Source of the DNA: Rhizobium sp. C1
GTDB taxonomy: Bacteria; Pseudomonadota; Alphaproteobacteria; Rhizobiales; Rhizobiaceae
Assembly: GCF_021026335.1 (NCBI RefSeq)
Contig: NZ_JAJNCY010000001.1
Location: 496,001-560,000, forward strand
Reading direction: 5' to 3'
DNA: 64,000 nucleotides
Shown here in pieces: positions 1,614 to 18,377 of the stretch (the stretch's first letter is position 1; each line of letters opens with the position of its first letter). The notes beneath the pieces are model-generated. The model was not told where the DNA came from, made no database searches, and was given only the letters and a program-made list of their open reading frames with translations. Made by a program: the position numbers and the translations under genes.

Positions 1614-3641
1614 TCACTCCCGGCTCCTTCTTCGCCGTCTCCCGCCGTCTCCACCCGCATCCGCCAACACCTTTTTCTCCGGCAGCGCGATCACCTTTTC
1701 CAGGTTCGGGAAGTGGTCCACCTTGTTGGGCATGGCCATGGCGTAGACGAAATGTTCCTGGAACTTGGGTTCCAGCGCGGTTTCGATCTTTTCGATCTTG
1801 CGCACCGTCTCCTCGATCTCGCGGCGATAGCCACGGTTGAGCAGGCACATGCGCGCACCGGTGCCGGCGGCGTTGCCGACGGCCTTGACCTTGTCCAGGT
1901 CGCAATCGGGGATGAGGCCGAGGACCATGGCGTATTTCGGGTCGATGAAGGTGCCGAAGGCGCCGGCGAGGCCGATGCGGTCGACGTGATCGATGCCGAG
2001 CTTGTCCATCAGCAGCTTCACGCCGGCATAAAGTGCGGCCTTGGCGAGCTGGATGGCGCGGACGTCGTTCTGCGTCACGGTGATCTTCTGTGCGCCGTTA
2101 TGCAGCAGATAGGAGAAGGTGCGGCCGTTTTCGAGGATGCGGGAGCTTCTGGCGGCCATGGCACCATCGACGACGCCATCTTCCGAGATGATGCCGGCGA
2201 GGAACATTTCTGCGACGACTTCGATGATGGCCGAGCCGCAGATGCCGGTGATGCCGGTCTTTTCCGCCGCTTCGGCAAAGCCCGGTTCATCCGACCACTG
2301 TTCGACGCCGATGACGCGGAAGCGTGGCTCCAGCGTGTCGCGGTCGATGCGGACGCGCTCGATGGCGCCGGGGGCGGCGCGCTGGCCGGAGGAGATTTCC
2401 GCGCCCTCGAAGGCCGGGCCTGTGGGCGAGGAGGCAGCGACCGTGCGGGCGGAGTTGCCGAGCACGATTTCGGCATTGGTGCCGATATCGACCAACAGCA
2501 TCTGCTCGTCCTGCCGGTGCGGCCCTTCGGTCAGCGTGGCGGCGGCTGCATCCGCGCCGACATGGCCCGCGATGCAGGGGAGCATGTAGACGCGCGCGCC
2601 CTTGTTGATATGAATGCCGATCTCTTCGGCCTTCAGATGCTGCGCACCAGAGGCCGCGAGCGCGAAGGGCGCGCCGCCGAGTTCGGTCGGGTCGATGCCG
2701 AGGAAGAGGTGGTGCATGACCGGATTGCCGACGAAGACGGCGTCGAGGATGTCCGCGCGGTCGATGCCGCCCTGTTCCGCCACCTTGTCGACGAGACCGT
2801 TGATCGCCTCGCGCACGGCGTTGGTCATCGCCTCGCGGCCGTCCGGGTTCATCATGACATAGGAGACGCGGCTCATCAGGTCTTCGCCGAAGCGGATCTG
2901 CGGGTTTGACGTGCCGGAGGAGGCGAGCGTCCGGCCCGACAGCAGCGAGGAGAGATGCATGGCAATCGTCGTCGATCCGATGTCGCAGGCAATGCCATAG
3001 GCCTCGTTCTTCAGACCCGGATAGAGCGCGATGAGGCGAGGGCGGTCGTCGGCCTCATCCTTGTGGATGGCCGCCGTGACCTTCCATTCGCCTTTGCGCA
3101 GGATTTGCTGGACGCGCGGCAGGAGATGGAAATCGACATCGATGCGCTTGAGCTTCCAGTCCTTTTCGAGCGCCACGAGCAGCCGGTCGAGATCGCCGAG
3201 CGGTTTTTCCATGTCGGGTTCCTCGACCTCGACATAGCACATGTGGATCGCCGGATCGCGCTCGATCACGCGGCCATCGCTCTCCTTGCGCACGACCTGA
3301 GCGTTGACGACCGTGTCCTGCGGAATGTCGATGACGAGATCGCCTTCAATGGTCGCCGAGCAGGAGAGGCGGCGGCCTTCGGGCAGCCCGCGCACGCGGT
3401 CATAGCGCTCTTCCTTCGGGCCGATGGGGGAAATGTGATCGTTGGAGGAGGTGATGCCATGCTTGGCAAACTGGCCTTCCTGCACCGAAACCTGACAGCG
3501 CCCACACGTCGCCCGCCCGCCGCAGACGCTTTCGACATAGACGCCAAGCTCGCGCGCGGCCTCTATGACCGGCGTGCCCGAGGCAAAACGGCCGCGCTTG
3601 CCCGAGGGCATGAAAAGGACGAGATGCGTTTCTTCAGTCAT
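1614..3641 (-). CDS. Corrinoid activation/reactivation protein (RACo/RamA-like, 2Fe-2S plus ASKHA)
   Basis: This protein (675 aa) reductively reactivates oxidised cob(II)alamin on corrinoid proteins using ATP. An N-terminal plant-type [2Fe-2S] domain has Cys40, Cys46, Cys49 and Cys93. A linker region follows (about 105-210), then an ASKHA ATPase-like domain starting near IACDIGSTTIAMHL, with VDIGTNAEIVLG and GLAGAFGTFIDP motifs. This is the architecture of RACo (acetogens) and RamA-like proteins. The tail is arginine-rich (GGRRRRRSRE), a feature shared with other proteins of this locus. It is the last gene of a run that includes the pterin methyltransferase. Its likely client is the corrinoid protein at 10212-10907. 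An activator of this kind replaces the SAM-dependent reactivation domain of classical MetH. Confidence 0.9.
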   Translation of the reverse strand: MTEETHLVLFMPSGKRGRFASGTPVIEAARELGVYVESVCGGRATCGRCQVSVQEGQFAKHGITSSNDHISPIGPKEERYDRVRGLPEGRRLSCSATIEGDLVIDIPQDTVVNAQVVRKESDGRVIERDPAIHMCYVEVEEPDMEKPLGDLDRLLVALEKDWKLKRIDVDFHLLPRVQQILRKGEWKVTAAIHKDEADDRPRLIALYPGLKNEAYGIACDIGSTTIAMHLSSLLSGRTLASSGTSNPQIRFGEDLMSRVSYVMMNPDGREAMTNAVREAINGLVDKVAEQGGIDRADILDAVFVGNPVMHHLFLGIDPTELGGAPFALAASGAQHLKAEEIGIHINKGARVYMLPCIAGHVGADAAAATLTEGPHRQDEQMLLVDIGTNAEIVLGNSARTVAASSPTGPAFEGAEISSGQRAAPGAIERVRIDRDTLEPRFRVIGVEQWSDEPGFAEAAEKTGITGICGSAIIEVVAEMFLAGIISEDGVVDGAMAARSSRILENGRTFSYLLHNGAQKITVTQNDVRAIQLAKAALYAGVKLLMDKLGIDHVDRIGLAGAFGTFIDPKYAMVLGLIPDCDLDKVKAVGNAAGTGARMCLLNRGYRREIEETVRKIEKIETALEPKFQEHFVYAMAMPNKVDHFPNLEKVIALPEKKVLADAGGDGGRRRRRSRE

Positions 3642-3650
3642 TGTCTGCTT

Positions 3651-4109
3651 TCATTCGATTGCGGTGGTCTTCTGGACCTTGCGCGGACGGCCGCCCTTGC
3701 TGCCATTGCGGCGGCTGGCTTCTACCTTGGCGGGGGAGCGGGAGAGGCCGCCGGGGCGTTGGGCGTCCATGAAGCTGCGGCTGCCGAAGATGCCATTCAT
3801 GAGGCCGGTGATCGTGTAATCGACATCCAGCGTTTCCCAATGGAGACCAGTTTCTCCGAGAAGTTCCACTTCGGCGAGTTCGTCTTCCGATGCATTGGCA
3901 AGGCCTTCGAGGGCTCTGGCGGGGACCATGAAAGTTGCACCGTTTTCAAAGTCTACAACGATGCGGCCCGTTTTGTCGTCATAGCAAACCTCGACGGGAA
4001 TGGAGCGTCCGGAACGCTCGGCCTGCCAATGGGCCTTGGCTTCGGCAAGCTCCGCCCCCATTTCAACGGTTTTGCCAAAGGGGATCACTTTGTAGTTTTC
4101 CTTCTTCAA
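3651..4109 (-). CDS. DUF2442 domain protein
   Basis: This is a 152-residue protein. The central part (about residues 38-110), with VEVCYDDKTGRIVVDFENGA and ALEGLANASEDELAEVEL, resembles the DUF2442 family. Members often occur in small two-gene, toxin-antitoxin-like loci, but no DUF4160 partner is seen here. The C-terminus holds GSKGGRPRKVQK, an AT-hook-like GRP core, so DNA binding is possible. It lies 9 bp upstream of the RACo start and 13 bp downstream of a small membrane protein gene, in the same direction. It is therefore probably co-transcribed with the methyl-transfer genes, although it and its neighbour look like an insertion. The function is unknown. Confidence 0.65.
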   Translation of the reverse strand: MKKENYKVIPFGKTVEMGAELAEAKAHWQAERSGRSIPVEVCYDDKTGRIVVDFENGATFMVPARALEGLANASEDELAEVELLGETGLHWETLDVDYTITGLMNGIFGSRSFMDAQRPGGLSRSPAKVEASRRNGSKGGRPRKVQKTTAIE

Positions 4110-4122
4110 CCAGAGACAAGTT

Positions 4123-4491
4123 TCAGCTCCTAGCGGTGAGGGCTAACGCAACTATCACGGACGACAACCACAACCAAGCCGCAAGAAACCAAGAAATCCC
4201 TACGACGAGGTTGCGAAGGAACGGCTGCTTCAGTTCCTCCGCCTTTGCATAGATATAGTCAGCCGTGATGCTGCCTATACATGCACCTAAATAGATACTG
4301 AATAGGAAGAATGTGCCCGATGAGAGGTAAACCGGAAGCTTGCCGACAGCTTCCATGAACTGAGTTGGAACCCTGTTCCAAAGCGTTGCCGAGATTCCGA
4401 GACAAAACGCCATCCTGACGATCATGCCAATAAAGTCAGAGAACTTTTTCGCATTATCAAAGTTCAGGGGGCCGGGCTTGATATCGGTCAC
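4123..4491 (-). CDS. Small hypothetical membrane protein
   Basis: This is a 122-residue protein that I do not recognise. It has about three to four hydrophobic segments: around residues 20-42, 52-80 and 92-119 (for example FFLFSIYLGACIGSITADYI and SWFLAAWLWLSSVIVALAL), so an inner-membrane location is likely. The DNA here is visibly lower in GC than the flanking methyltransferase and RACo genes, which suggests it was acquired. It is 9 bp from the end of the pterin methyltransferase and 13 bp before the DUF2442 gene, all on the minus strand. No known motif was found. Confidence 0.6.
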   Translation of the reverse strand: MTDIKPGPLNFDNAKKFSDFIGMIVRMAFCLGISATLWNRVPTQFMEAVGKLPVYLSSGTFFLFSIYLGACIGSITADYIYAKAEELKQPFLRNLVVGISWFLAAWLWLSSVIVALALTARS

Positions 4492-4500
4492 GGTATGGAC

Positions 4501-5472
4501 TCACTCGCTCGCGCCACCCCCGCCAACGCGTGCGGCACGCCCACCACGCCGGGCCGGACGATCGCCGCTGGCGGCCGGGGCGGGGCTTTGGGCAGCTGCG
4601 CCGCCTTCGGCCGGCTTGTAATCGCGATAGGTCATGATCCAGTTGGAGCAGTTGGGGTCGGTGCCGTTCAGCACATTGGCGGCGCGGACGGCTTCCATTT
4701 CCTGCGGGCGGCAGGGGTTCATGATGGCGGACGTCATGCCGGCGCCGATGACCATGGGGATGAAGCCGGCATTGATGCCATGGCGATGCGGCAGGCCGAA
4801 GGAGATGTTGGAGAGGCCGCAGGTCGTGTTGACCTTCAGCTCGTTGCGCAGGCGATAGAGCAGCTGGAAGACCTGGCGGCCTGCATCGCCCAGCGCGCCG
4901 ATCGGCATGACGAGTGGGTCGACAACGATATCCTCCGGCTTGATGCCGTAGTCGGCGGCGCGCTCGACGATCTTCTTGGCGACGGCAAAGCGGACGTCCG
5001 GGTCCATGGAAATGCCGGTCTCATCGTTGGAGATGGCCACGACCGGCACGTCATACTTCTTGCAGAGCGGCAGGATGGCTTCCAGCTTTTCTTCCTCGCC
5101 GGTGACGGAGTTCACCAGCGGGCGGCCCTTGGCGACCTTGAGAGCTGCTTCGATGGCGGCCGTCACGGAGCTGTCGATGGAGAGCGGAACGTCGACGAGA
5201 CCCTGCACGATTTCCAGCGTCTGGACGAGCAGGCCCGGCTCGGTCTCGTTGGGGTTGACGGAGGTGACGCCCGCATTGACGTCGAGCATGGTGGCGCCGG
5301 CGGCGACCTGTTCCAGCGCGTCCTTGATGACGGTTTCGAAATTGCCGACCTGCATTTCGGCGGCGAGCTTTTTGCGGCCGGTTGGGTTGATGCGTTCGCC
5401 GATCACGCAGAAGGGCTGGTCGAAGCCGATGACGATTTCGCGGGTGGCGGAGGCGACGATGGTGCGGGTCAT
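4501..5472 (-). CDS. Methyltetrahydrofolate:corrinoid methyltransferase (pterin-binding domain, MtrH/AcsE/MetH-folate-module type)
   Basis: This is a stand-alone pterin-binding TIM barrel of 323 residues. It moves a methyl group between tetrahydrofolate and a corrinoid protein, corresponding to the second module of MetH or to AcsE. Motifs include FCVIGERINPTGRKK (about residues 20-34), TMLDVNAG, PLSIDSS, LVNSVTGEE, and the substrate-pocket stretch TTCGLSNISFGLPHR. ATG 5472 gives a natural N-terminus (MTRTIVASATREIVIGFDQP); the longer frame to 5658 overlaps metF and is not family-like. The C-terminal 35 residues are low-complexity and Arg/Gly-rich (GDRPARRGGRAARVGGGG). It lies 65 bp downstream of metF and in the same run as metV and RACo. 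Confidence 0.92.
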   Translation of the reverse strand: MTRTIVASATREIVIGFDQPFCVIGERINPTGRKKLAAEMQVGNFETVIKDALEQVAAGATMLDVNAGVTSVNPNETEPGLLVQTLEIVQGLVDVPLSIDSSVTAAIEAALKVAKGRPLVNSVTGEEEKLEAILPLCKKYDVPVVAISNDETGISMDPDVRFAVAKKIVERAADYGIKPEDIVVDPLVMPIGALGDAGRQVFQLLYRLRNELKVNTTCGLSNISFGLPHRHGINAGFIPMVIGAGMTSAIMNPCRPQEMEAVRAANVLNGTDPNCSNWIMTYRDYKPAEGGAAAQSPAPAASGDRPARRGGRAARVGGGGASE

Positions 5473-5537
5473 TGTGTTCGGTCCTTCAGGCGGAGAACGG
5501 TTTAACTGATCATTGTGGATGAAGCGGCGTCGCCGCC

Positions 5538-6629
5538 TCAGGATTGATGCGTGGCGGCAGCTTTGACCATGTCCTGCTGGTTCTGCAACTGGCCTTCTTG
5601 AACTTCTGTCGCATGGGCGGCGGCAATGGCCTCGCTGCGGGAGACTTCGCGCTTCCACGGCTGGCGGCCCTTCAGCACGCCGGATTCATGGACGATTTCG
5701 GCGACATATTCTTCCTGCCGGTAGGCCATGACATGGATGCCGGAAACGCCTTCGATCTCCTTGACCTCGTTGATCATGTCGATGCAGATCTGCTTGCCTT
5801 CCTGCTTCTGGTTTTCCGCGCCTTCGAGCCGCTTGATGATATTGTCGGGAATATGGATGCCCGGCACATTGGTCCGGATCCATTTCGCGGTCTTGGCCGA
5901 GGCCATCGGGCCGACGCCGGCGAGGATGAAGCATTTTTCGGCGTAACCGAGATCGACCACCTTCTTCATGTATTCCTTGAACATGGGAATATCGAAGACA
6001 TATTGGCTCTGCACGAATTGCGCGCCCGCCGCGATCTTCTTGCCGAGTCGATAGGGGCGGAAGTCGTAGGGCGGGGCAAAGGGGTTGATCGCGGCGCCGA
6101 GAAAGACACCCGGCGGCGTCGTCAGCTTGCGGCCGGAGAGGAACTTGCCTTCGTCGCGCATGGTGCGAATGGTTTCGAGCATGGACATGCAGTCGAGGTC
6201 GAAGACCGGCTTCGCGCCCGGCTGGTCGCCCGTCTGCACGCCGTCGCCGGTGAGGCAGAGAATGTTCTGCACGCCCATGGCGGAGGCGCCGAGAACGTCT
6301 CCCTGGATCGCGATGCGGTTGCGGTCGCGGGCCGAAATCTGCATGATCGGCGCATAGCCCATGCGCGTCAACAGCGCGCAGATGCCGACGGAGGACATGT
6401 GGCAGTTGGCGCCCGAGGCGTCCACCGCATTGATGCCGTCCACCCAGCCTTCGAAGATCGCGGCGCGCTCGTAGACGTCTTCCGGATTGGCGCTGTCCGG
6501 CGGATTGAGTTCGGCGGTGACGGCGAATTCGCCGCGGCGCAGGATGCGCTCCAGGCGGCCGCGCGAAGAATGGCCGGGCAGGGGCTCCAGCGGCAGGCCG
6601 GGATCGTGCGGATGGGTGTCGTTCATCAT
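5538..6629 (-). CDS. metF: Methylenetetrahydrofolate reductase, MetF family
   Basis: This 363-residue MetF-type TIM-barrel flavoprotein interconverts 5,10-methylene-THF and 5-methyl-THF. Family features include FAVTAELNPPDSANPEDVYE at the N-terminus, the GVQNILCLTGDG segment and the AGAQFVQSQYVFD strand. The start ATG 6629 overlaps the metV stop by 4 bases (ATGA); a second ATG follows directly at 6626. The pairing with metV resembles the acetogen MetFV arrangement rather than a solitary E. coli-type metF. In this context it can run in the reductive direction to feed methionine synthesis, or in the oxidative direction when methyl groups enter from an MttB-type demethylase. The direction cannot be read from sequence. 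Confidence 0.92.
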   Translation of the reverse strand: MMNDTHPHDPGLPLEPLPGHSSRGRLERILRRGEFAVTAELNPPDSANPEDVYERAAIFEGWVDGINAVDASGANCHMSSVGICALLTRMGYAPIMQISARDRNRIAIQGDVLGASAMGVQNILCLTGDGVQTGDQPGAKPVFDLDCMSMLETIRTMRDEGKFLSGRKLTTPPGVFLGAAINPFAPPYDFRPYRLGKKIAAGAQFVQSQYVFDIPMFKEYMKKVVDLGYAEKCFILAGVGPMASAKTAKWIRTNVPGIHIPDNIIKRLEGAENQKQEGKQICIDMINEVKEIEGVSGIHVMAYRQEEYVAEIVHESGVLKGRQPWKREVSRSEAIAAAHATEVQEGQLQNQQDMVKAAATHQS

Positions 6630-7189
6630 TTCACCGCTCCCTGATCCTGCGCGGGGGCTTCCTTTGCCTTCGCGGCCAATGCCGTAACGCGCAGCCATGC
6701 GGACGTCTCGCGCAGTGACTGATCGACCGGCTTCTGAACGTTCAGGATCGCGTCACCCTTGGCCATGTTCTGCGAGCCCTTCCAGGCCTGAACCCAGACG
6801 CAGGGCATGTCCGGCTCGACCTCGCAATGGCCGTTGGCGCGGACGCCGCCGCAGGGACCGTTGCGGAGCTGCTTGGGACAGTTCATCGGGCAGCTCATGC
6901 CGGTGGAGGACAGCGCGCACTGGCCGCACATGCGACAGTCGAAGAGCAGGCCCTTCACATTGCGCTCGATGAACTTCACCGGCTTTTCGGCGCGGCTGTA
7001 GCCTATGGCTTTCCAGAAGGGGTGAAGCTTGAGAAAAAAGTCGGCGAAGAGATTGTAGATCACTTCGAGAAAGCGAGAGTGGCGCACCGACCAGAGCCTG
7101 ATCGAGTAGCTGCGCCCGGCGCGGCGCGAGGGTGAAACGCCGGAGGGCTGGTAGGCCGTGCCGGTGGGCTTCTTGGCGGCCTCAGCCAT
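6626..7189 (-). CDS. metV: MetV-like methylenetetrahydrofolate reductase partner (Cys-rich iron-sulfur protein)
   Basis: This 187-residue protein matches the MetV / MTHFR C-terminal-domain family found next to metF in acetogens. Its core carries a dense cysteine motif, CRMCGQCALSSTG followed by SCPMNCPKQLRNGPCGG and later CEVEPDMPC. This pattern fits an Fe-S or zinc site that links the flavin subunit to an electron donor. The N-terminus is basic. I chose ATG 7189, which overlaps the upstream gene by 8 bases and starts MAEAAKKPTG; the longer frame to 7282 adds residues that only shadow the upstream gene. The tight overlaps with the PF13769 gene and with metF imply one translationally coupled unit. 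Confidence 0.85.
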   Translation of the reverse strand: MAEAAKKPTGTAYQPSGVSPSRRAGRSYSIRLWSVRHSRFLEVIYNLFADFFLKLHPFWKAIGYSRAEKPVKFIERNVKGLLFDCRMCGQCALSSTGMSCPMNCPKQLRNGPCGGVRANGHCEVEPDMPCVWVQAWKGSQNMAKGDAILNVQKPVDQSLRETSAWLRVTALAAKAKEAPAQDQGAVK

Positions 7190-7484
7190 TGTCGCGGCCT
7201 CCGGCGTGGACCAGAGCCACAAGGCGTTCCTTGGTGTAGGCCGCTTCGAGATCGGCGGCGGCCTTGTCTGCCTCGGTGTCAAGATCGTCGGATACGGGAA
7301 TGGGGTCAGCCTTGCGCCATTCGGCGAGATAGTCGTCGGTCTCGGCTGCGCCCGAGCGCATGGCGCACATGTCGATGGCTTCAGTGAAGCGCAGCGACAA
7401 TTCGCGCTTGGCCGATGTGCGGCCCTTCTTCACGATCACCTGCGCCGGAATGTCACGCCAATAGACGACGATAAGGTCTGCCAT
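7182..7484 (-). CDS. PF13769-type 'virulence factor' domain protein of the methyl-transfer locus
   Basis: This is a 100-residue protein starting MADLIVVYWRDIPAQVIVKKG. It contains the conserved core WRDIPAQVIV, ELSLRFTEAIDMCAMR and DDYLAEWR of a small family labelled virulence factor (PF13769), a name with no functional support. The gene overlaps metV by 8 bases and heads the metV-metF-methyltransferase unit. Such context in alphaproteobacteria suggests an accessory role in corrinoid methyl transfer. The start at 7484 is preferred because the frame up to 7556 is Cys/Arg-rich and not family-like. No catalytic residues can be assigned. The function is unknown. Confidence 0.75.
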   Translation of the reverse strand: MADLIVVYWRDIPAQVIVKKGRTSAKRELSLRFTEAIDMCAMRSGAAETDDYLAEWRKADPIPVSDDLDTEADKAAADLEAAYTKERLVALVHAGGRDNG

Positions 7485-7803
7485 GTTGATTGTTCCGCCT
7501 CTCCCCAGATCGCAAGAGCCTCGCCTGCAAGGCCTGCAAATGCAAGGAGAATGCACCTGCGTTCACAGGCGGACGCCACTTGCCGCGACGTCGGGATTGC
7601 TCAAAAGCGACAGCGGGATTTTCTCGGATGACGCGAATGGGCGATATTTTTCACGAATTCTTAAATTTCCGATTTACCATTTGTCTCTACCGTGAACGCA
7701 GTTGCAGTCGTGCAGAGCCACAGTGTTTCAACGGTTGCTCAAAAAGCCGAGACTTTACGCCCGCCGGGTTGTAACGTCGGGCGATTCTACCGATAGGTTC
7801 TTC
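7485..7803. promoter_or_regulatory. Divergent promoter region (methyl-transfer operon / GGDEF gene)
   Basis: This 319-bp stretch has no credible gene. It separates the minus-strand PF13769-metV-metF unit from the plus-strand GGDEF gene, so it should hold promoters for both. An AT-rich patch (about 7658-7682, GAATTCTTAAATTTCCGATT) stands out from the GC-rich surroundings. No clear operator was recognised. Confidence 0.5.
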
Positions 7804-9270: not shown

Positions 9271-9285
9271 GCCGAAAACAGCATA

Positions 9286-9897
9286 TCAGGTCGCAAGATC
9301 CGCAGCGCTTTCGAGCGCGGGCGTCAGGTCGCCATAGCCGGTAAACCGATATTCGTAGGCAAGGCCGAGATAATCGGCCGCCCATTTCGCCTTGGCCTGA
9401 AGGTCTTTATCTTCGGTCTGCGCCAGATAGACGATCTTCTCGTAATTTCCGAAAACCATCGGGATCAGTTCGGGATGCTTGTCGAGCTTCAGCGGTTCGA
9501 TGACGAAGGCTTCGAACTGCCGCGCGATGAGGTCGGTCAGATAGAAGGCCGTGATTTCATCGCCACATTCGGTGAGGAATTTGTCGACGCCGGTGTAGAA
9601 GGCATAGCAATGGGGACCGGCGATCCGCTCGATGCCTTCCTCGGCGCAGATGCGGTCGATTTCGCCCCGCGTACCGCATTCCGCGTAGCCGATGAAGATG
9701 CGTTCGATCCCTTCGGCGCGGGCTTCGGCAATCTTTTCGCGAAGGGCGGGGGCGATCCTGTCGGGGTAGACATGCCATATGGCGGGCAGGCATGTCAGAT
9801 CGACATGCGCGAGCTTGTTCGCCTCGCATATCGCGAGGATTTCGCGCGCGAGAGCTCCGCATGCGATGACCCGAACCTTGCTTTCAGCGGATTTCAT
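9286..9897 (-). CDS. DUF1638 protein of the corrinoid methyl-transfer locus
   Basis: This 203-residue protein belongs to the DUF1638 family by its motifs, a family that recurs beside corrinoid methyltransferases and split methionine synthase genes. Potential metal ligands are conserved-looking: a Cys in VIACGALAREI, a Cys and His in LTCLPAIWHVYPDRI, a Cys in GYAECGTRGEID and a His-Cys pair in AGPHCYAFYTG. The last two motifs look like an active or metal site. The start is ATG 9897 (MKSAESKVRV), since the long frame upstream covers the lipoprotein gene on the other strand. It lies downstream of the corrinoid protein gene with the lipoprotein between them. A role in assembling or maintaining the corrinoid system is plausible but inferred. 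Confidence 0.8.
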   Translation of the reverse strand: MKSAESKVRVIACGALAREILAICEANKLAHVDLTCLPAIWHVYPDRIAPALREKIAEARAEGIERIFIGYAECGTRGEIDRICAEEGIERIAGPHCYAFYTGVDKFLTECGDEITAFYLTDLIARQFEAFVIEPLKLDKHPELIPMVFGNYEKIVYLAQTEDKDLQAKAKWAADYLGLAYEYRFTGYGDLTPALESAADLAT

Positions 9898-9990
9898 TCG
9901 TAATCCTCGGGAACTTCCGCACGAGTCATGCATTATGATGACACCGGCGGGAGCAGCCGGGTCAACATTTTTTACATCAGGGGTGACACC

Positions 9991-10155: not shown

Positions 10156-10173
10156 GTTCGCTAGCGAATGTGA

Positions 10174-10207: not shown

Positions 10208-10211
10208 TTTG

Positions 10212-10907
10212 TCAGGCGTTCAGGCTGTTGTGCTTGCGCTTGATGAAGTCCTTGGCGGTTTCCACTGCCACGGCCGCATCGCGACAATAGGCGTCGGCGC
10301 CGATCGCCTTGCCGAATTCCTCGTTGAGCGGCGCGCCGCCGACGAGAACGACGAGATCGTCGCGAATGCCCTTTTCTTTCAGTGTATCGATGACAACCTT
10401 CATGTAGGGCATGGTCGTCGTCAGAAGCGCGGACATGCCGAGAATGTCCGGCTGTTCCTTTTCAATGGCTTCCAGATAGGCTTCCACCGCGTTGTTGATG
10501 CCGAGGTCGACGACGTCGAAGCCGGCGCCTTCCATCATCATGCCGACGAGGTTCTTGCCGATGTCGTGGATGTCGCCCTTGACGGTGCCGATGACCATCT
10601 TGCCCTGCTTCGGGGCGTCGGTGGCCGCAAGCAGCGGGCGCAGGATATTCATGCCGGCCTTCATCGCGTTGGCCGAGAGGAGAACTTCCGGCACGAAGAG
10701 AATGCCGTCACGGAAGTCGATGCCGACGATGCGCATGCCCTCGACGAGCGCCTGGGTCAGAACGTCATAGGGCGCCCAGCCGCGATCCAGCAGGATGCGG
10801 GTGGCTTCCTCGATTTCCTCCTTCAGACCGTCGTAAAGGTCGTCATGCATCTGCTGCACGAGTTCTTCGTCGGAAAGCTCGGAAAGAATGATTTCATCGT
10901 CAGACAT
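10212..10907 (-). CDS. Corrinoid (B12-binding) methyl-carrier protein, MtbC/MetH-B12-module type
   Basis: This 231-residue corrinoid protein shuttles methyl groups between methyltransferases. The N-terminal helical cap (about residues 10-95) is followed by a Rossmann B12 domain with the signature GDIHDIGKN, where His114 is the expected lower axial cobalt ligand. Downstream SALLTTTM and VGGAPLNEEF motifs also fit. The N-terminal 35 residues are very acidic (for example SDDEIILSELSDEELVQQ). I chose ATG 10907 (MSDDEII) rather than the upstream frame start at 10940. It is the first minus-strand gene of the methyl-transfer set and the natural partner of the MttB-like, pterin-binding and RACo proteins. 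Confidence 0.92.
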   Translation of the reverse strand: MSDDEIILSELSDEELVQQMHDDLYDGLKEEIEEATRILLDRGWAPYDVLTQALVEGMRIVGIDFRDGILFVPEVLLSANAMKAGMNILRPLLAATDAPKQGKMVIGTVKGDIHDIGKNLVGMMMEGAGFDVVDLGINNAVEAYLEAIEKEQPDILGMSALLTTTMPYMKVVIDTLKEKGIRDDLVVLVGGAPLNEEFGKAIGADAYCRDAAVAVETAKDFIKRKHNSLNA

Positions 10908-11047
10908 GGTCGCTCCCGCTTTGAGATAAGCCTTCGGCATGATTGCGCCGGACCCTTTTATACAGTGTTAGATTAAACTTAGCGTAACGCGCAATCGAAA
11001 GCGACAGCGGTCGCGCCGATCTGCGACGGAAGGCGCGGGCGAGCGCT

Positions 11048-12118: not shown

Positions 12119-12335
12119 GAGCAGTATATTGTCCTGGGGAGGGCTGGTCTGTCCGCCTCTAGGGCAGCGACCGGGCTCACGCAAGGACGCCGCGACGTAA
12201 AATGCCACTGGCGCCCGCAGAATTTTGCTTCGCGAACAGCGTTGTCAGTGGCGCATTTAGGAATGTCCGGCTAGGGCTATCATCTAAGATCGTTTCTTAT
12301 GGGTCGAAAAGACCGTCATATCGGGTGAGGGAACC
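12119..12335. promoter_or_regulatory. Divergent promoter region, AbrB gene / MttB-like gene
   Basis: This 217-bp spacer holds the promoter of the MttB-like gene and of the AbrB gene. An imperfect inverted repeat flanks a 40-bp core: AAATGCCACTGGCG near 12200 and CAGTGGCGCATTT near 12247. It may be an operator for a regulator encoded elsewhere, as no regulator gene lies nearby. GGGTGAGGGAACC just before ATG 12336 is a plausible ribosome site. Confidence 0.45.
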
Positions 12336-13919
12336 ATGGATCAGGATATCGAACTTGCAGGTGCTGCCGCCGAGGGAGATGGCGGACGGCGGAGCCGTAG
12401 CGCCGGCCGGGGCGCCGCAGCGCGCCGCGCGGCCCGCACGGGTGGCGGTCCGGGTCCCTCGCTTCCCTACATCACCCGCAAGATCCGCGAATACGAGGTT
12501 CTGGACGAGGAAGGTCTGAGCCTGATCGAGAACAACGCAGACCGTGTTCTGGAAGAAATCGGCATCGAGTTCCGTGAGGACGCCGAAGCTCTGGCGCTCT
12601 GGAAGGAAGCCGGCGCAGATGTGCGCGGCGAGCGCGTGCATTTCCCGAAAGGCCTGTGTCGTGAGCTGCTGAAGACCGCACCACGTGAGTTTACCTGGCA
12701 TGCGCGCAACCCGGAGCGCAGCGTTCATGTCGGCGGCAAGGCGACGATCTTCGCGCCGGTTTATGGCCCGCCCTTCGTCCGCGATCTCGAAGGCAACCGC
12801 CGCTATGCGACGATCGAAGATTTCCGCAATTTCGTGAAGCTTGCCTACATGGCGCCGTCGATGCATTCGTCGGGCGGCACGGTCTGCGAGCCGGTGGACA
12901 TCCCGGTCAACAAGCGCCATCTCGACATGGTCTACAGCCATATCAAGTATAGCGACAAGCCGTTCATGGGCTCGGTGACTGCGCCGGAACGCGCGGAAGA
13001 CACGATCGCCATGGCAAAGCTCGTCTTCGGCGACGAGTTTGTCGAAAACAATTGCGTGACGCTGAACCTCATCAACGCCAACTCGCCGATGGTCTTCGAC
13101 GAAACCATGGTCGGCGCGCTGAAGGTCTATGCCCGCCACAACCAGGCTTCGGTGATCTCGCCCTTCATTCTCTCCGGCGCGATGAGCCCGGTGACGGTCG
13201 CCGGTACGCTGACGCAGATCCTCGCTGAAGTTCTGGCCGGAGCTTCCTTCACCCAGCTCATCCGCAAGGGTTCGCCGGTTCTGTTCGGCACGTTTGCGGC
13301 CTCGATCTCGATGCAGTCCGGTGCGCCGACCTTCGGGACGCCGGAACCGTCGCTCGTGTCTTACGGTGCGGCGCAGCTTGCCCGTCGTCTCGGCCTTCCG
13401 TTCCGTACCGGCGGCTCGCTCTGTGCGTCAAAGGTTCCGGATGCGCAGGCCGCGCATGAGAGCGCCAACACGCTCAACATGACGCTGCTGGCCGGCACGA
13501 ATTTCGTGCTGCACGCCGCCGGCTGGCTTGAGGGCGGTCTGGTCTCCTCGTACGAGAAGTTCATGATCGACCAGGACCAACTCGGCATGATGCAGAAGAT
13601 GGCCGAGGGCCTTGATCTCTCCGAAAACGCGCAGGCGCTCGATGCCATCCGCGAGGTCGGTCCAGGCAGCCACTATCTCGGCTGTGCGCATACGCAGGCG
13701 AATTTCCAGACGGCTTTCTATCGTTCGCCGCTGGCCGACAACAATTCGTTCGAGCAGTGGGAAATCGAAGGTTCCAAGCGGATCGAGGAGCGAGCCAATG
13801 CGCTCTGCCGTTCGTGGCTTGAGGCTTACGAAGCCCCGCCGCTTGATCCGGCCATCGACGCGGCGCTGCTCGCCTTCATCCAGCAGAAGAAGGACTCGGT
13901 TCCTGACGCCTTCACCTGA
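12336..13919 (+). CDS. MttB-superfamily corrinoid-dependent methyltransferase (non-pyrrolysine)
   Basis: This 527-residue member of the trimethylamine methyltransferase superfamily (PF06253) is expected to demethylate a quaternary or tertiary amine onto the corrinoid protein. Family blocks include YITRKIREYEVLDEEGLSLIE, HARNPERSVHVGG, APVYGPPFVRDLEG, MHSSGGTVCEP and GGSLCASKVPDAQAAHESANT. There is no in-frame TAG codon, so it is a non-pyrrolysine enzyme. Characterised relatives use glycine betaine, proline betaine or carnitine, and the substrate cannot be chosen from sequence. Residues 14-40 are an Arg/Gly/Ala-rich tail (GDGGRRSRSAGRGAAARRAA) unlike the conserved core. The TGA stop is followed in frame by 47 more open codons (separate entry). 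Confidence 0.9.
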   Translation: MDQDIELAGAAAEGDGGRRSRSAGRGAAARRAARTGGGPGPSLPYITRKIREYEVLDEEGLSLIENNADRVLEEIGIEFREDAEALALWKEAGADVRGERVHFPKGLCRELLKTAPREFTWHARNPERSVHVGGKATIFAPVYGPPFVRDLEGNRRYATIEDFRNFVKLAYMAPSMHSSGGTVCEPVDIPVNKRHLDMVYSHIKYSDKPFMGSVTAPERAEDTIAMAKLVFGDEFVENNCVTLNLINANSPMVFDETMVGALKVYARHNQASVISPFILSGAMSPVTVAGTLTQILAEVLAGASFTQLIRKGSPVLFGTFAASISMQSGAPTFGTPEPSLVSYGAAQLARRLGLPFRTGGSLCASKVPDAQAAHESANTLNMTLLAGTNFVLHAAGWLEGGLVSSYEKFMIDQDQLGMMQKMAEGLDLSENAQALDAIREVGPGSHYLGCAHTQANFQTAFYRSPLADNNSFEQWEIEGSKRIEERANALCRSWLEAYEAPPLDPAIDAALLAFIQQKKDSVPDAFT

Positions 13920-14063
13920 AGCGAGCCCGCAGCCAGGGAGCAAGGCGCGGCGGCCCATGTGACGGAGATGATCCAGCGCGCCGTCTGGCGGCCGCATTAT
14001 CAGGAATTGCGCGATCGGGCGCTGCTCGATCAGGCGAGGAAGATTAAAGAGGGCGGGCAGTGA
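13920..14063 (+). other. In-frame open extension after the MttB-like stop codon
   Basis: Reading on in the same frame past the TGA at 13917-13919 gives 47 sense codons, then TGA at 14061-14063, which overlaps the ATG of the next gene. The peptide includes HVTEMIQRAVWRPHYQEL and RDRALLDQARKIKEGGQ, which look like real amphipathic helix sequence, and the reading frame ends coupled to the downstream gene. It could be a remnant of a lost gene, a separate short ORF (GTG or ATG starts near 13959-13968), or a readthrough tail. None of these is proven. Confidence 0.4.
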
Positions 14064-14740
14064 TGTCCGCCTTCGGCCTTTTGACGACGCTTGACGCCGA
14101 CCTTGAGCCCTCCGGGATCAGGACGCGCGGTGTTGTAACATTCGCGGAAGGCGAGGGGCCGGCGCTGCCGGATGGAAGACCGGTGGGGAGCATGGTCCTG
14201 CTCGGCAATGTGGGCGGCTCGATCTGGCCGGCCTTTTCTGCGTGGCGCAAGTCTTACCGAGGCGCGGATCCGCTGGATGCCTGGTCGAAGTCCATCATCG
14301 ACCCGGTCGCTGCAAGGTTTGGAGCGACGGCCTTCTATCCGTCCGATCAGCCCTATATGCCGTTCCAGCAATGGGCGATGCGTGCGGAAGGTCTGAGAGC
14401 TTCACCGCTCGGGATCCTTGTTCATCCGGACTATGGGTTGTGGCATGGCTATCGCGGGGCGCTTGCCTTCCGGGAGGGGTGCGATGCGCCTGCCTTCACG
14501 CCTGCTGTGTCACCCTGCGAAACGTGTCTTGAGAAGCCCTGTCTCTCAGCCTGTCCGGCGCAGGCCATTTCGCTGGCGGGATTTGCCGTCGATCCGTGCC
14601 GAAGCCATCTGGCGTCCGAAGCGGGACGGTGGAGCTGCATGGCGTCAGGTTGCATAGCGCGCAATGCCTGTCCGGTCGGTGCAGGCCATCGCTACCCTCC
14701 AGAGCAGCTAGCCTTCCATATGGACGCGCTGTTTTCCTGA
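14063..14740 (+). CDS. Double-cluster ferredoxin-like iron-sulfur protein of the methyl-transfer locus
   Basis: This 225-residue protein has an unassigned N-terminal half and a C-terminal region with eight cysteines at 152, 155, 160, 164, 179, 192, 197 and 203. The first four read C-x2-C-x4-C-x3-C-P, and the second group has wider spacing ending C-P. Two [4Fe-4S] clusters are likely, although the spacing is not the standard bacterial ferredoxin motif. The N-terminal half, with PSDQPYMPFQQWAMRAEGL and SPLGILVHPDYGLWHGYRGA, is somewhat reminiscent of QueG-type or reductive-dehalogenase iron-sulfur proteins. ATG 14063 overlaps the preceding stop by one base, after the MttB-like gene. A job as electron donor to RACo or to MetV is a reasonable guess. 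Confidence 0.7.
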   Translation: MSAFGLLTTLDADLEPSGIRTRGVVTFAEGEGPALPDGRPVGSMVLLGNVGGSIWPAFSAWRKSYRGADPLDAWSKSIIDPVAARFGATAFYPSDQPYMPFQQWAMRAEGLRASPLGILVHPDYGLWHGYRGALAFREGCDAPAFTPAVSPCETCLEKPCLSACPAQAISLAGFAVDPCRSHLASEAGRWSCMASGCIARNACPVGAGHRYPPEQLAFHMDALFS

Positions 14741-14744
14741 CTCC

Positions 14745-15089: not shown

Positions 15090-15240
15090 TGTCTGCTGTC
15101 TCGCGTTTCGAATCGATGGGACGACGCGCATCATATGTTGAGTGAGCCCGCTTCGCATCCCCCCCATTTGAACCAGCTGATCAGAACACATTAAGAATCG
15201 CTAATGTTTTTATGTAAGAATCCTATTAAGAAAGCTGTTC

Positions 15241-16257
15241 ATGAAACAGCTTTCGATCTGCATGCCGAGCAATCGTGGTTTTGAGACGTCGTTTCGCGCC
15301 ATCGAGACCGCGCTTGCCTTTTGTGAGGCGCGCAACGCCATCCTCATCGTGTCTGACAATTCCCGTGATGTGGAAAAGGCGGCTTACTGGAAGGGGCGCT
15401 CTGAGCACCTTCTCTATGTTCCGGACGCACCGCTTGAAGCGAGTGCCAACGGGCTCAACTCCATAAAGGCGGTCGAAACACCGTTTCTCATGCCGCTTGG
15501 CGATGATGATGAATTGTATTCGGACGATGCCCATACGCCGGTGGATCTTGCCACGCTTGGTCCGGATGTCATCGGCGTGAAGCCCCTGATAGAACTCTTT
15601 TCACCGGGGACGGAAATGGCGGCGCGGCGCGCCTTCGCGCTGGATGGGGAAACGGCAGGTCTTCGGCTCCAGCAGTTTTTGGAGCGCAATCAAGGCGACA
15701 ACACATCCTATTACAGCGTTTTCCGCACCGCGCCCTATATTTCTCTGGGTGAGTATTTCCAGGCTTCGCATCCGACGCGCGGCCTTTACTGCGACTGGGC
15801 GCTGGCCATGGCGCTGTTCATGGCCGGCAAGCTCCTGTTCGATCCGTCGATTGTCTTTCGCTACAATGCCTCCGCGTGGTCCACGCCGGCTCTGGTCGAG
15901 GAGAATGCCCGGAAATTCTACACGCGCGTTGGCCTTCCGGGCAATTTCCGGGATTATAATATGCTCTTGCGGGCGATGGACCTGTTTGTTCTTTGCGGGC
16001 GCAAGGGCGGCGGCATGGCGCGCGAGGCGCTTGCCGAGCTTCAGACCGGCGCGCTTTGGGAGTTTCTCAATTACGGCTTTTCGGCGGTCCTGGAACGAGC
16101 CAATCCAGAGACGCCGAATCTCGTGGAACTGGCGCAAAAAGGGTTGCAGGAGCTTAACCCGGTGCTGAAATTCCTTCATGGTGCGGCCGTACTTGATTGT
16201 TTCCAGCCGGGTCTCAAGGCCAAATATATCGCTTTTCTCAAGTCCGCCTCCGTTTGA
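15241..16257 (+). CDS. Glycosyltransferase-like protein, tandem copy 1
   Basis: This 338-residue protein looks like a GT-A (family 2-type) glycosyltransferase. The N-terminus LSICMPSNRGFETSFRAIETAL is the first Rossmann strand, ILIVSDNSRD the next, and MPLGDDDELY (about residues 84-93) holds a DxD-type metal site. A later YCDWALAMALFMAGK region fits the acceptor half. There is no membrane segment. The acceptor and donor are unknown. The next gene is a paralogue of the same length with an identical C-terminal block, LDCFQPGLKAKYIAFLKSAS. The ATG lies in the loop of a hairpin (AAAGCTGTT / AACAGCTTT, 15231-15253) and no strong Shine-Dalgarno is seen, so translation may be structure-controlled. 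Confidence 0.72.
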   Translation: MKQLSICMPSNRGFETSFRAIETALAFCEARNAILIVSDNSRDVEKAAYWKGRSEHLLYVPDAPLEASANGLNSIKAVETPFLMPLGDDDELYSDDAHTPVDLATLGPDVIGVKPLIELFSPGTEMAARRAFALDGETAGLRLQQFLERNQGDNTSYYSVFRTAPYISLGEYFQASHPTRGLYCDWALAMALFMAGKLLFDPSIVFRYNASAWSTPALVEENARKFYTRVGLPGNFRDYNMLLRAMDLFVLCGRKGGGMAREALAELQTGALWEFLNYGFSAVLERANPETPNLVELAQKGLQELNPVLKFLHGAAVLDCFQPGLKAKYIAFLKSASV

Positions 16258-16339
16258 GCGCCGCCGAGTCCTCCTGCCGGATTTTTCTCTATGAACAAGA
16301 TTTAATACCGTGGTTGAAGAATCGCTTTAAAAGCGATTC

Positions 16340-17356
16340 ATGAGGCAGATTTCCATTTGCATGCCGAGCAATCGCGGCTTTGAAAAATCGTTCCGCGCCA
16401 TCGAGACTGCGCTGGCTTTCTGCGAGGCGCGCGATGCCATGCTCATTGTTTCTGACAATTCCCGCGATGCGGAGAAGGCCGCCTATTGGCAGGGCCGCTC
16501 GCGGCATCTTTGTTACCTCGCCGACGCGCCTCTGGAGCCGAACGCGAATGCGATGAACACGTTTGCGGCGGTCGAGACGCCCTTCCTGATGCCGATCGGC
16601 GATGATGACGAGTTGCATGCAGACGATGCGCATGTGCCGGTCGATCTGGCGGCGCTCGCACCGGATGTCATCGGCGTGAAGCCGGTGACGGAACTGTTTA
16701 TCGGGGGAACCGATATCGCTGTGCGTCGGGCCTTTGAGCTTGATGCGCAGACGCCCGGCCTGCGTCTGCGGCAGTTTTTCCAGCGCAATGAAGGTGACAA
16801 TACAGCCTTTTACAGCATCTTCCGGACTGCGCCTTACATGTCGTTGCGCACCTGTTTTCTCGAATTCCATCCGACGCGCGGCGGGTATTGCGACTGGCCC
16901 ATGAGCATGGCGCTGTTCATGAGCGGCAAGCTGCTTCTCGATCGCTCCATCGTCTTTCGCTACAACGCGGAGGCCTGGGCCACGCGGGACGCGATTGATG
17001 AAAGCGAGAAGCGGCTTTACGCAAGCGCCGGCCTGCCGGAGAACTTTCACGATTACAGTCTGATCCTGCGCGCCATGGATCTCTTCGTCTTTTCAGCACG
17101 CAAGAACAGCGGACTGACGCGCGACGCGCTCGCCGAGGTTCAGTCCGGCGAGCTTTGCGACCTCTTCAATCAAGGCTTTGCTGCTGTTCTCGAACGTGTC
17201 GGCGACGCCAACAGGCTGCTCGCCGAGGCTGCGCGCAAGGGGGGACAGGAACGCAACCCGATGCTCAAATTCCTGCACGGAGCGACCGTGCTCGACTGTT
17301 TCCAGCCAGGCCTGAAGGCGAAATATATCGCCTTCCTCAAGTCTGCATCCGTTTGA
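16340..17356 (+). CDS. Glycosyltransferase-like protein, tandem copy 2
   Basis: This is a paralogue of the preceding gene with the same length (338 aa) and layout: ISICMPSNRGFEKSFRAIETAL, MLIVSDNSRD, MPIGDDDELHADDAHVPVDL with the DxD-type metal motif, and the invariant C-terminal block. The codons of the two copies differ throughout, even where the protein is identical, so the duplication is old. The start ATG 16340 follows directly after a perfect 19-nt palindrome (AATCGCTTT-A-AAAGCGATT, 16320-16338). The 82-bp gap after copy 1 has no terminator, so the two may be co-transcribed. It converges on the homocysteine methyltransferase gene. Substrates are unknown. Confidence 0.72.
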   Translation: MRQISICMPSNRGFEKSFRAIETALAFCEARDAMLIVSDNSRDAEKAAYWQGRSRHLCYLADAPLEPNANAMNTFAAVETPFLMPIGDDDELHADDAHVPVDLAALAPDVIGVKPVTELFIGGTDIAVRRAFELDAQTPGLRLRQFFQRNEGDNTAFYSIFRTAPYMSLRTCFLEFHPTRGGYCDWPMSMALFMSGKLLLDRSIVFRYNAEAWATRDAIDESEKRLYASAGLPENFHDYSLILRAMDLFVFSARKNSGLTRDALAEVQSGELCDLFNQGFAAVLERVGDANRLLAEAARKGGQERNPMLKFLHGATVLDCFQPGLKAKYIAFLKSASV

Positions 17357-17369
17357 GGACTGATCGCTC

Positions 17370-18377
17370 TCAACCGCGACGACGGCGACGCTCGCCGTTG
17401 CCGCCGCTTTCGGACGCCATCTTGTTGCGCAGCGGACCGATGCGGGTCACGACATCGTCAATGGTCGGACGCGGGCCCTTCGTGTGGCTGTCGATGGCGC
17501 CGCGGATCGAGCGCAGGTGATCGCTGGACGTGCCGCAGCAGCCGCCAATGATGCGCGCGCCGGCGTCGATCGCCAGATGAGCATATTCTGCCATCAGTTC
17601 CGGCGTGCCGGAATAGTATATTTCCGCGCCGCGATATTCCGGTATGCCGCAATTGCCCTTGACGACGACGACGGCATTCGGATCCGCCGCCGTCATGTCG
17701 AGGAGCGACGAGAGAATGTCGGCAGCGCCCACGCCGCAATTGGCGCCGAAGGCGACCGGCTTGTCGGCGAGACCGTCAGCCACCTGCGGCATGTCCTTGG
17801 GGTTGAGACCCATCATCGTCTTGCCGGCGGTGTCGAAGGAGCCGGTGTAAACATAAGGCAGGTCGAGCGCGATGGCCGCTTCGGCGGCTGCGCGGATTTC
17901 GTCCGGCGAGGACATGGTCTCGATCCAGGCGATGTCGATGCCGCCGGCCTTGAGGCCTTCCATCTGTTCCTTGAACGCGGAGACCGCGTCGTCATAGGTC
18001 ATCGCGCCGAGCGGAACCAGAAGCTCGCCGGTCGGACCGACCGAGCCGGCAACGATGACCTTGCGACCGGCCTTGTCGGCGACGGCGCGCGCGATCTCGG
18101 CGGCTTGTCTGTTCAGGTCGAAGACGCGATCCTGTGCGTGGTGCAGCTTCAGGCGATGACGCGTACCGCCGAAAGAGTTGGTGAGGATGATATCCGCGCC
18201 GGCATCCACGAAGTCCTGATGCAGCTTGGTGATGTTCTCTGGCTTTGTCTCGTTCCAGAGTTCCGGCGCTTCGCCGGCCTCCAGCCCCATGGCGAAGAGA
18301 TTGGTGCCCGTGGCTCCATCGGCCATGAGTACGCCTTTTTCGGAAAGCAGGGCCTGCAGCGGATTTGCGCTCGTCAT
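17370..18377 (-). CDS. Homocysteine S-methyltransferase (betaine-homocysteine methyltransferase / MetH homocysteine-module type)
   Basis: This 335-residue S-methyl_trans (PF02574) domain protein methylates homocysteine to methionine. The zinc ligands are visible as the Cys in FGANCGVGA and the CysCys pair in IIGGCCGTSSDH. ADGATGTNLFAMGL at the N-terminus and LTNSFGGTRHRLKLH also match. The methyl donor may be betaine, or the methyl-corrinoid protein if this is the homocysteine module of a split methionine synthase, which the rest of the locus favours. The C-terminus ends in an Arg-rich tail (GNGERRRRRG), like RACo. A perfect 22-bp palindrome lies 27 bp upstream of its start. Confidence 0.88.
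   Translation of the reverse strand: MTSANPLQALLSEKGVLMADGATGTNLFAMGLEAGEAPELWNETKPENITKLHQDFVDAGADIILTNSFGGTRHRLKLHHAQDRVFDLNRQAAEIARAVADKAGRKVIVAGSVGPTGELLVPLGAMTYDDAVSAFKEQMEGLKAGGIDIAWIETMSSPDEIRAAAEAAIALDLPYVYTGSFDTAGKTMMGLNPKDMPQVADGLADKPVAFGANCGVGAADILSSLLDMTAADPNAVVVVKGNCGIPEYRGAEIYYSGTPELMAEYAHLAIDAGARIIGGCCGTSSDHLRSIRGAIDSHTKGPRPTIDDVVTRIGPLRNKMASESGGNGERRRRRG

What the first reader, a model, noticed from the sequence alone, without database searches (positions are those of the whole stretch)
1614..18377. A dispersed methionine synthase: separate homocysteine, folate and B12 modules with a RACo reactivase, MetF/MetV, DUF1638, PF13769 and an MttB-type demethylase
Seen: the locus encodes each MetH module as its own gene: S-methyl_trans (17370-18377), pterin-binding (4501-5472) and B12-binding (10212-10907). 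An ATP-dependent activator (1614-3641) could stand in for MetH's SAM-dependent reactivation domain, and MetF/MetV are here too. Known: split MetH with RamA-like activators and DUF1638 partners has been reported in marine alphaproteobacteria (recalled, Phaeobacter). Inference: here the split enzyme is joined to an MttB-superfamily demethylase, so methyl groups from a quaternary amine could reach homocysteine or folate directly through one corrinoid protein. This would be a combined assimilation and methionine system in an aerobe, placed beside the B12 pathway.
Basis: partly seen in the sequence, partly recalled or inferred. Interest (0 to 1): 0.85.

Follow-up and report, generated by a model that had tools for sequence, protein, structure and literature searches.

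The report
Known betaine demethylase/methionine gene cluster
This stretch of a bacterium of the Rhizobium family carries a known set of vitamin B12 proteins thought to strip methyl groups from betaine-like compounds and pass them to folate or to methionine, and next to it sits an overlooked small iron-sulphur-type protein that may handle the vitamin for them.

Summary
Their order recurs in most related loci: RACo, MtgD (pterin), MetF, MetV, PF13769, DUF1638, MtgC (B12), MtgB (MttB-type), MtgE (homocysteine). The genome belongs to the Rhizobium family. The main idea, one corrinoid protein joining betaine demethylation to methionine synthesis in an aerobe, is in print: PNAS 2025 (PMC12478193) shows it genetically in Ruegeria pomeroyi and states the same colocalisation with the cob operon for Sinorhizobium meliloti. 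'Dispersed methionine synthase' is only partly right here: the genome also has a complete 1257-aa MetH and a second MetF. Its predicted fold matches, at E<=0.001, only QueG, CblC/MMACHC and PceA, all B12 proteins. Of 199 family genomes, all 119 with it (over 90 bits) have DUF1638. I propose a corrinoid reductase or loader for MtgC; no activity was tested, and in distant genomes it also occurs away from Mtg genes. DUF1638 and the MetH activation domain are near-complementary in the family (65 both, 48 MetH only, 78 DUF1638 only, 8 neither).

The parts
1614..3641 (-). RACo/RamA-type ATP-dependent corrinoid reactivator with N-terminal 2Fe-2S domain
   Evidence: PF14574, PF17651, PF17650, PF00111; matches 3zyy E 2e-97; CxxxxxCxxC in 62 of 62 locus copies read
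4501..5472 (-). MtgD: methyl-H4F:corrinoid methyltransferase (pterin-binding)
   Evidence: PF00809; NF005719 methyltetrahydrofolate:corrinoid methyltransferase over cut-off; closest solved chains MetH folate module and corrinoid methyltransferases
5538..6626 (-). MetF-like methylene-H4F reductase, one of two in the genome
   Evidence: PF02219; the other copy is at G000:C1:309948
6626..7189 (-). MetV, MTHFR partner
   Evidence: PF12225 E 2e-27
7182..7556 (-). PF13769 small protein of unknown role (true start probably further in)
   Evidence: PF13769 E 2e-25; in 65 of 68 full-flank loci
9286..9897 (-). DUF1638 protein
   Evidence: PF07796; Cys 13, 36, 74 and 97 invariant in 40 sequences; AF2 pLDDT 91.5, no PDB fold match at E<=0.001
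10212..10907 (-). MtgC: corrinoid (B12) protein
   Evidence: PF02310, PF02607; DxHxxG in 80 of 80 copies; below the cut-off of the two NCBIfam MtgC models
12336..13919 (+). MtgB: MttB-superfamily methyltransferase without in-frame stop (non-pyrrolysine)
   Evidence: PF06253 E 8e-232, no stop in frame; nearest solved chain 4yyc, then 2qne and 9yce 'Glycine betaine methyltransferase'
14063..14740 (+). Unannotated protein of CblC/QueG fold with eight invariant Cys; proposed corrinoid reductase or loader
   Evidence: No Pfam/NCBIfam family over cut-off; 61 of 68 full-flank loci, 67 of 80 in all; invariant Cys; AF2 pLDDT 92.3; the 16 Foldseek hits at E<=0.001 are all QueG, MMACHC or PceA
17370..18377 (-). 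MtgE (Bmt): homocysteine S-methyltransferase module
   Evidence: PF02574; nearest solved chain is a MetH homocysteine domain 1q7m E 2e-41, BHMT 1lt7 E 1e-11; GGCCG in 51 of 51 copies read
18769..28364 (+). Cobalamin genes CobQ, CobU, CobW, CobN, CobO
20375..20724 (+). Cobalamin riboswitch between CobQ and CobU
   Evidence: RF00174 E 1.7e-17

Best explanation
The locus encodes the MtgBCD(E) corrinoid methyl-transfer system of aerobic Alphaproteobacteria. MtgB takes a methyl group from a quaternary amine, most likely glycine betaine, and puts it on Co(I)-MtgC. MtgD passes it to tetrahydrofolate, and MetF with MetV oxidises methyl-H4F for energy and C1 supply. MtgE can instead take the methyl (from betaine, or from methyl-H4F through MtgD running backwards) to make methionine. 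RACo with ATP, helped by DUF1638, restores Co(II) to Co(I). In this bacterium MetH is also present, so the MtgE branch is a second, betaine-fed and possibly folate-independent route. The CblC/QueG-fold protein next to MtgB is proposed to reduce, clean or load the corrinoid of MtgC. Shown here: genes, order, conservation, predicted fold, co-occurrence. Shown by others: function of MtgC and MtgD in R. pomeroyi. Inferred: the substrate in this organism, flux through MtgE, the role of the CblC/QueG-fold protein.
For: Family and structure matches; conserved order in most of 68 full-flank loci; 42 of the 43 DUF1638-bearing genomes among 240 of the class have MttB; published mutants and the S. meliloti layout (PMC12478193); split MetH, RamA-like protein and DUF1638 fitness in P. 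inhibens (PMC5764234 passages); cob genes and B12 riboswitch next door. CblC/QueG-fold gene: in 67 of 67 loci that have both, it lies downstream of mtgB on the same strand, 59 within 310 bp, median gap 101 bp; all 119 family genomes with it have DUF1638, 108 of 110 same-contig pairs within 10 kb.
Against: No substrate or activity was tested; other MttB-superfamily members act on other betaines (PMC12478193). PMC12366255 passages report that P. inhibens Bmt alone uses betaine or DMSP in vitro, which does not need MtgC. The MtgC here is below the cut-off of the NCBIfam MtgC models. 9 of 51 class genomes with MttB lack DUF1638. The CblC/QueG-fold family is not confined to this system: in the class 12 of 49 genomes with it lack MttB, in 16 of 20 distant regions read it is beside no window gene of this system by tblastn, and 24 of 143 family genomes with DUF1638 lack it.
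Confidence: 0.8

Rival explanations
1. MtgE is a stand-alone betaine:homocysteine methyltransferase (Bmt) and the corrinoid proteins serve only catabolism to folate; the two share a neighbourhood, not a corrinoid carrier.
For: NCBIfam names it betaine--homocysteine S-methyltransferase, over cut-off; purified P. inhibens Bmt uses betaine and DMSP in vitro (PMC12366255 passages).
Against: Nearest solved chain is a MetH homocysteine domain (E 2e-41) rather than BHMT (E 1e-11); PMC12478193 states that this group lacks BHMT betaine-binding residues and that mtgC and mtgD mutants are methionine auxotrophs.
Confidence: 0.25
2. The locus is the organism's own dispersed methionine synthase, replacing MetH, as the title of the finding says.
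For: All modules present; 78 of 199 family genomes have DUF1638 but no PF02965 match, so replacement may have happened in relatives.
Against: Complete MetH with activation domain in this genome and a second MetF.
Confidence: 0.07
3. The CblC/QueG-fold protein beside mtgB is a general B12 chaperone or decyanase of the CblC kind serving all B12 enzymes, and sits here by operon convenience.
For: In 12 class genomes it occurs without MttB, 11 of these with a PF02965 match; in 16 of 20 distant regions it is not beside genes of this system.
Against: Within the family it never occurs over 90 bits without DUF1638 (119 of 119), so none of the 48 family genomes with PF02965 but no DUF1638 carries it at that threshold (G333, one of them, has a dropped 24-bit match in an 839-aa frame); it is next to MtgC also in two distant genomes in other arrangements (L125, L134).
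Confidence: 0.35
4. The CblC/QueG-fold protein is a shortened epoxyqueuosine reductase for tRNA.
For: QueG is the top fold match and hhalign aligns its C-terminal part to this genome's QueG (prob 71).
Against: The genome has a separate QueG-type gene of 373 aa; within the family presence follows DUF1638.
Confidence: 0.04

Closest known systems
MtgBCDE system of Ruegeria pomeroyi and Phaeobacter inhibens (PMC12478193; PMC5764234)
   Same: Same modules: MttB-type MtgB, MtgC, MtgD, MtgE, RamA/RACo, DUF1638, MetF2
   Different: Here the genes are clustered, MetH is also present, MetV and PF13769 belong to the cluster, and the CblC/QueG-fold gene is recognised
Sinorhizobium meliloti mtgBCDE plus cob locus (PMC12478193 text; bmt = SMc04325)
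   Same: Stated to have MtgBCDE, the two reactivation modules and the cob operon colocalised, and to have MetH: essentially this locus. Sinorhizobium loci L046, L047 and L051 show the same gene order
   Different: This window has apparent insertions (GGDEF, AbrB, DUF2442, a membrane protein) not found in the 68 full-flank loci
MtgABC of Desulfitobacterium hafniense and MtgB of Methanolobus vulcani (as described in PMC12478193)
   Same: MtgB homologous by the shared PF06253 domain, corrinoid protein, RamA
   Different: Anaerobes; no homocysteine module in the described set; their MtgC is of another clade according to that paper
CblC/MMACHC, QueG and reductive dehalogenases (B12 reductive fold)
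   Same: Predicted fold of the 14063-14740 protein; its cysteine region aligns with QueG
   Different: Only 225 aa, not found by the QueG DUF1730 model, no family in Pfam or NCBIfam, genetic context of methyl transfer; fold matches are moderate (TM-score 0.48-0.60 by query)

Membership tests
MtgBCDE glycine betaine demethylase / split methionine synthase | MttB-type MtgB without pyrrolysine | tested here: met
   PF06253 E 8e-232, open frame without stop
MtgBCDE glycine betaine demethylase / split methionine synthase | Stand-alone corrinoid protein with B12 cap and DxHxxG motif | tested here: met
   PF02607+PF02310, DxHxxG in 80 of 80
MtgBCDE glycine betaine demethylase / split methionine synthase | Stand-alone methyl-H4F:corrinoid methyltransferase and homocysteine module | tested here: met
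MtgBCDE glycine betaine demethylase / split methionine synthase | RamA/RACo and DUF1638 present | tested here: met
MtgBCDE glycine betaine demethylase / split methionine synthase | MtgC over the curated NCBIfam MtgC cut-offs | tested here: not met
   212 bits of 370 and 174 of 310; PMC12478193 says the alphaproteobacterial MtgC is distinct from that of anaerobes, so this is not a defining feature of the aerobic system
MtgBCDE glycine betaine demethylase / split methionine synthase | Glycine betaine is the substrate | not testable with these tools
   only homology: nearest solved chains 4yyc, 2qne, 9yce
Replacement of MetH by split enzyme | No full-length MetH in the genome | tested here: not met
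   MetH of 1257 aa on C11 with all domains
Replacement of MetH by split enzyme | No MetE in the genome | not tested
BHMT (stand-alone betaine-homocysteine methyltransferase) | Closer to BHMT than to the MetH homocysteine domain | tested here: not met
   1q7m E 2e-41 against 1lt7 E 1e-11
BHMT (stand-alone betaine-homocysteine methyltransferase) | Betaine-binding residues of human BHMT | not tested
   PMC12478193 says they are absent from this group
CblC/QueG/RdhA B12 reductive fold (14063-14740) | Fold match | tested here: met
   16 PDB chains with E<=0.001, all QueG, MMACHC or PceA
CblC/QueG/RdhA B12 reductive fold (14063-14740) | Two 4Fe-4S clusters (eight Cys) as in QueG/RdhA | tested here: inconclusive
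   eight invariant Cys in 62 sequences, region aligned with QueG; clusters themselves not shown
CblC/QueG/RdhA B12 reductive fold (14063-14740) | Binds a corrinoid | not testable with these tools
   no ligand modelling available
QueG (epoxyqueuosine reductase) | QueG DUF1730 domain | tested here: not met
   PF08331 search of the genome gives one place, on C5, not this gene

The most novel reading that the evidence does not exclude
The 225-aa protein encoded beside mtgB founds an unnamed family: a minimal CblC-fold corrinoid reductase with two Fe-S clusters that loads or re-reduces the B12 of a free-standing corrinoid protein in air, working with RACo and DUF1638. It would be the missing electron donor or cofactor-delivery part of aerobic corrinoid methyl transfer.
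Probability: 0.45. Interest if true: 0.65.

Novelty: new member of a known kind. Interest (0 to 1): 0.42.

Why it matters
The locus and its relatives indicate that the published betaine-methionine corrinoid system is common in the Rhizobium family. By proxy (DUF1638 and PF02965) it runs there beside MetH in 65 of 199 genomes and without the MetH activation domain in 78, so it may be a methionine route where MetH is missing. Corrinoid methyl transfer needs Co(I), which oxygen readily oxidises (general knowledge); how aerobes supply electrons and cofactor to a free corrinoid protein is not settled in the papers seen here. The gene beside mtgB gives a concrete, unnamed candidate that can be deleted and purified.

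Tried and rejected
Considered and rejected: the locus as sole methionine synthase (complete MetH found); the 14063-14740 gene as a short QueG (separate QueG-type gene); DUF1638 function by fold (good model, pLDDT 91.5, but no PDB match at E<=0.001; weak carbamoyltransferase and Egt2 matches not used) and by sequence against the PDB (best E 0.061). GGDEF, AbrB, DUF2442 and the membrane protein inside the cluster were considered as parts and dropped, because tblastn found none in 68 full-flank loci. A link of the CblC/QueG-fold family with PF02965 was tested in the class and not found (p 0.42). PHROGs library for that protein: no hit. For a description of it I searched papers and read the listings only; none of the listed titles or abstract starts describes it. 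The main text of PMC12478193 holds no 'ferredoxin', '4Fe', 'iron-sulfur', 'virulence' or 'metV'; parts 5 and 6 were not read through and its supplements could not be opened. The library lacks most subscription papers, so a description elsewhere is not excluded. Locus tags SMc04329-SMc04332 were guessed.

Thresholds and dropped rows: in co-occurrence counts I kept matches of alignment A1 over 90 bits; 12 weaker genomes of 61 in the class and 1 of 120 in the family (G333) were dropped; most of their matches cover about 60-140 of 230 positions, several in open frames of 430-500 aa, and what they are was not tested. Two of the kept class matches are fragments at contig ends or short (G061, G064). 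Handles were copied by hand from the listings into scripts. Motif counts cover only copies whose reading frame was recovered (for example RACo 62 of 67, MtgE 51 of 53).
Full report
What was checked. The nine families of the finding were tested against Pfam and NCBIfam. All are there: RACo 1614-3641, pterin-binding 4501-5472, MetF 5538-6626, MetV 6626-7189, PF13769 7182-7556, DUF1638 9286-9897, B12 protein 10212-10907, homocysteine methyltransferase 17370-18377, all on the minus strand, and the MttB-type protein 12336-13919 on the plus strand. Cobalamin genes follow from 18769, with a cobalamin riboswitch.

The organism. The closest are Rhizobium daejeonense, other Rhizobium, Shinella, Ciceribacter and Mesorhizobium (90-93% identity), so the window is from the Rhizobium family. 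Of the 80 loci, 68 had full flanks; in them the gene order is conserved in most (MtgB 66, DUF1638 66, MtgD 65, PF13769 65, RACo 64, the 14063-14740 gene 61, MetF and MetV 53, MtgE 50). Three deviate strongly (L034, L072, L083). GGDEF, AbrB, DUF2442 and a small membrane protein inside this window's cluster were found in none of the 68 and look like insertions of this lineage. The 80 loci were picked for a close MtgC, so they are not an even sample.

Is it the methionine synthase? The genome holds a complete MetH of 1257 aa on contig C11 with homocysteine, pterin, B12 cap, B12 and reactivation domains, and a second MetF. metE was not searched for. So the split system is not the only methionine route here. 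In 199 genomes of the family, PF02965 (MetH reactivation) and DUF1638 (marker of the split system) are near-complementary: 65 both, 48 PF02965 only, 78 DUF1638 only, 8 neither (Fisher p 2e-7). In 240 genomes of the class, DUF1638 occurs in 43, of which 42 have MttB; 20 of the 43 have PF02965 and 23 do not; 9 of 51 MttB genomes lack DUF1638. In the class DUF1638 and PF02965 are not associated either way (p 0.40). DUF1638 is a proxy; MtgC and RACo were not counted, and related genomes share history, so p values overstate independence.

Already in print. PMC5764234 (passages) gave the split MetH, the RamA-like protein and DUF1638 fitness data in P. inhibens and already noted that S. [quoted passage not shown] PMC12366255 (passages) reports that P. 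inhibens Bmt (MtgE) alone makes methionine from betaine or DMSP in vitro, and describes an S. meliloti metH mutant restored by betaine. The first and third papers differ on whether MtgE needs MtgC. Here MtgE matches a MetH homocysteine domain (1q7m, E 2e-41) far better than BHMT (E 1e-11), which leans to the corrinoid-dependent view but does not settle it; the BHMT betaine-binding residues were not checked here.

Substrate. MtgB's nearest solved chain is 4yyc (putative trimethylamine methyltransferase), then 2qne and 9yce, the last named glycine betaine methyltransferase. It is the only MttB match of the genome. Glycine betaine is the most likely substrate by homology and context; other betaines are not excluded.

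What was missed. Downstream of mtgB, on its strand, lies a 225-aa gene (14063-14740) with no Pfam or NCBIfam family over cut-off. It is in 67 of 80 loci, in all 67 on the strand of mtgB and downstream of it (59 within 310 bp, the other 8 at 608-1736 bp, median 101). Its alignment of 62 sequences (61 of the 67 after thinning, plus the window) has eight invariant cysteines. Sub-threshold sequence hits were to MMACHC and QueG among other Fe-S proteins. AlphaFold2 gives pLDDT 92.3 for the best model, though the five models range from 76 to 92. Foldseek against the PDB gives 16 chains at E<=0.001, all QueG, MMACHC (human or worm CblC) or PceA, TM-score 0.48-0.60 by query and rmsd 5-9 A, so the match is moderate. 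hhalign aligns its C-terminal cysteine region to this genome's own QueG-type protein (prob 71), which is a separate gene. I read it as a compact member of the B12 reductive fold. In the family, 119 of 199 genomes have it (over 90 bits; one weak match dropped) and all 119 have DUF1638; of 110 with both on one contig, 108 are within 10 kb. 24 DUF1638 genomes lack it.

Against that reading. In the class 49 of 240 genomes have it over 90 bits: 37 with MttB and 12 without, 11 of the 12 with PF02965. I read 20 regions around it in distant genomes (10 chosen from genomes without MttB, 10 from genomes with it): it was next to MtgC and DUF1638 in 2 (L125, L134), near an MttB paralogue in 2 (L128, L130), and beside no gene of this system in 16, by tblastn with the window's proteins, which may miss distant copies. 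Fourteen neighbours scanned in seven MttB-less regions (L117-L121, L124, L126) gave no corrinoid gene; they include secA, accA, alaS and srp54 types. So it may be a general corrinoid-handling protein that the Rhizobium family keeps only with this system. L125 has two uroporphyrinogen-decarboxylase-type proteins with MtgC and DUF1638 and no MttB in its genome, which ties the gene to corrinoid proteins rather than to MttB itself.

Mechanism proposed. Betaine + Co(I)-MtgC gives dimethylglycine + methyl-Co(III)-MtgC (MtgB); the methyl goes to H4F (MtgD) and is oxidised by MetF/MetV, or to homocysteine (MtgE). Accidental Co(II) is returned to Co(I) by RACo with ATP. DUF1638 helps by unknown means. 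The CblC/QueG-fold protein is placed as electron donor, ligand remover or loader for the corrinoid of MtgC. The last step is inference.

Verdict. The gene set is real and well conserved; the central idea is published; the claim of a replaced MetH fails for this genome; the conserved CblC/QueG-like gene is the part worth following.

Noticed in passing
14063-14740: Unnamed CblC/QueG-fold protein with eight invariant cysteines downstream of mtgB; in the family found (over 90 bits) only in genomes that have DUF1638 (119 of 119).
   Followed up: yes
7702-9270; 11048-12121; 3651-4109; 4123-4491: PAS-GGDEF protein, AbrB-type membrane protein, DUF2442 protein and a small protein that looks membrane-bound, inside the cluster; none found in 68 related full-flank loci.
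   Followed up: partly
15241-16257 and 16340-17356: Tandem paralogous proteins without Pfam family between the CblC/QueG-fold gene and mtgE; homologues in 4 of 68 related loci.
   Followed up: no
7182-7556: PF13769 'virulence factor' small protein is as constant a part of the cluster (65 of 68) as RACo (64 of 68) and has no assigned role.
   Followed up: no
L125:9213-19325: Distant genome without MttB has MtgC, DUF1638 and the CblC/QueG-fold gene with two URO-D-type proteins and a methylmalonyl-CoA mutase-type protein: possibly another corrinoid methyl-transfer system.
   Followed up: no
20375-20724: Cobalamin riboswitch between CobQ and CobU; it overlaps the start of the mechanical CobU ORF (20544), whose Pfam match begins only at residue 86, so CobU probably starts further in.
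   Followed up: no
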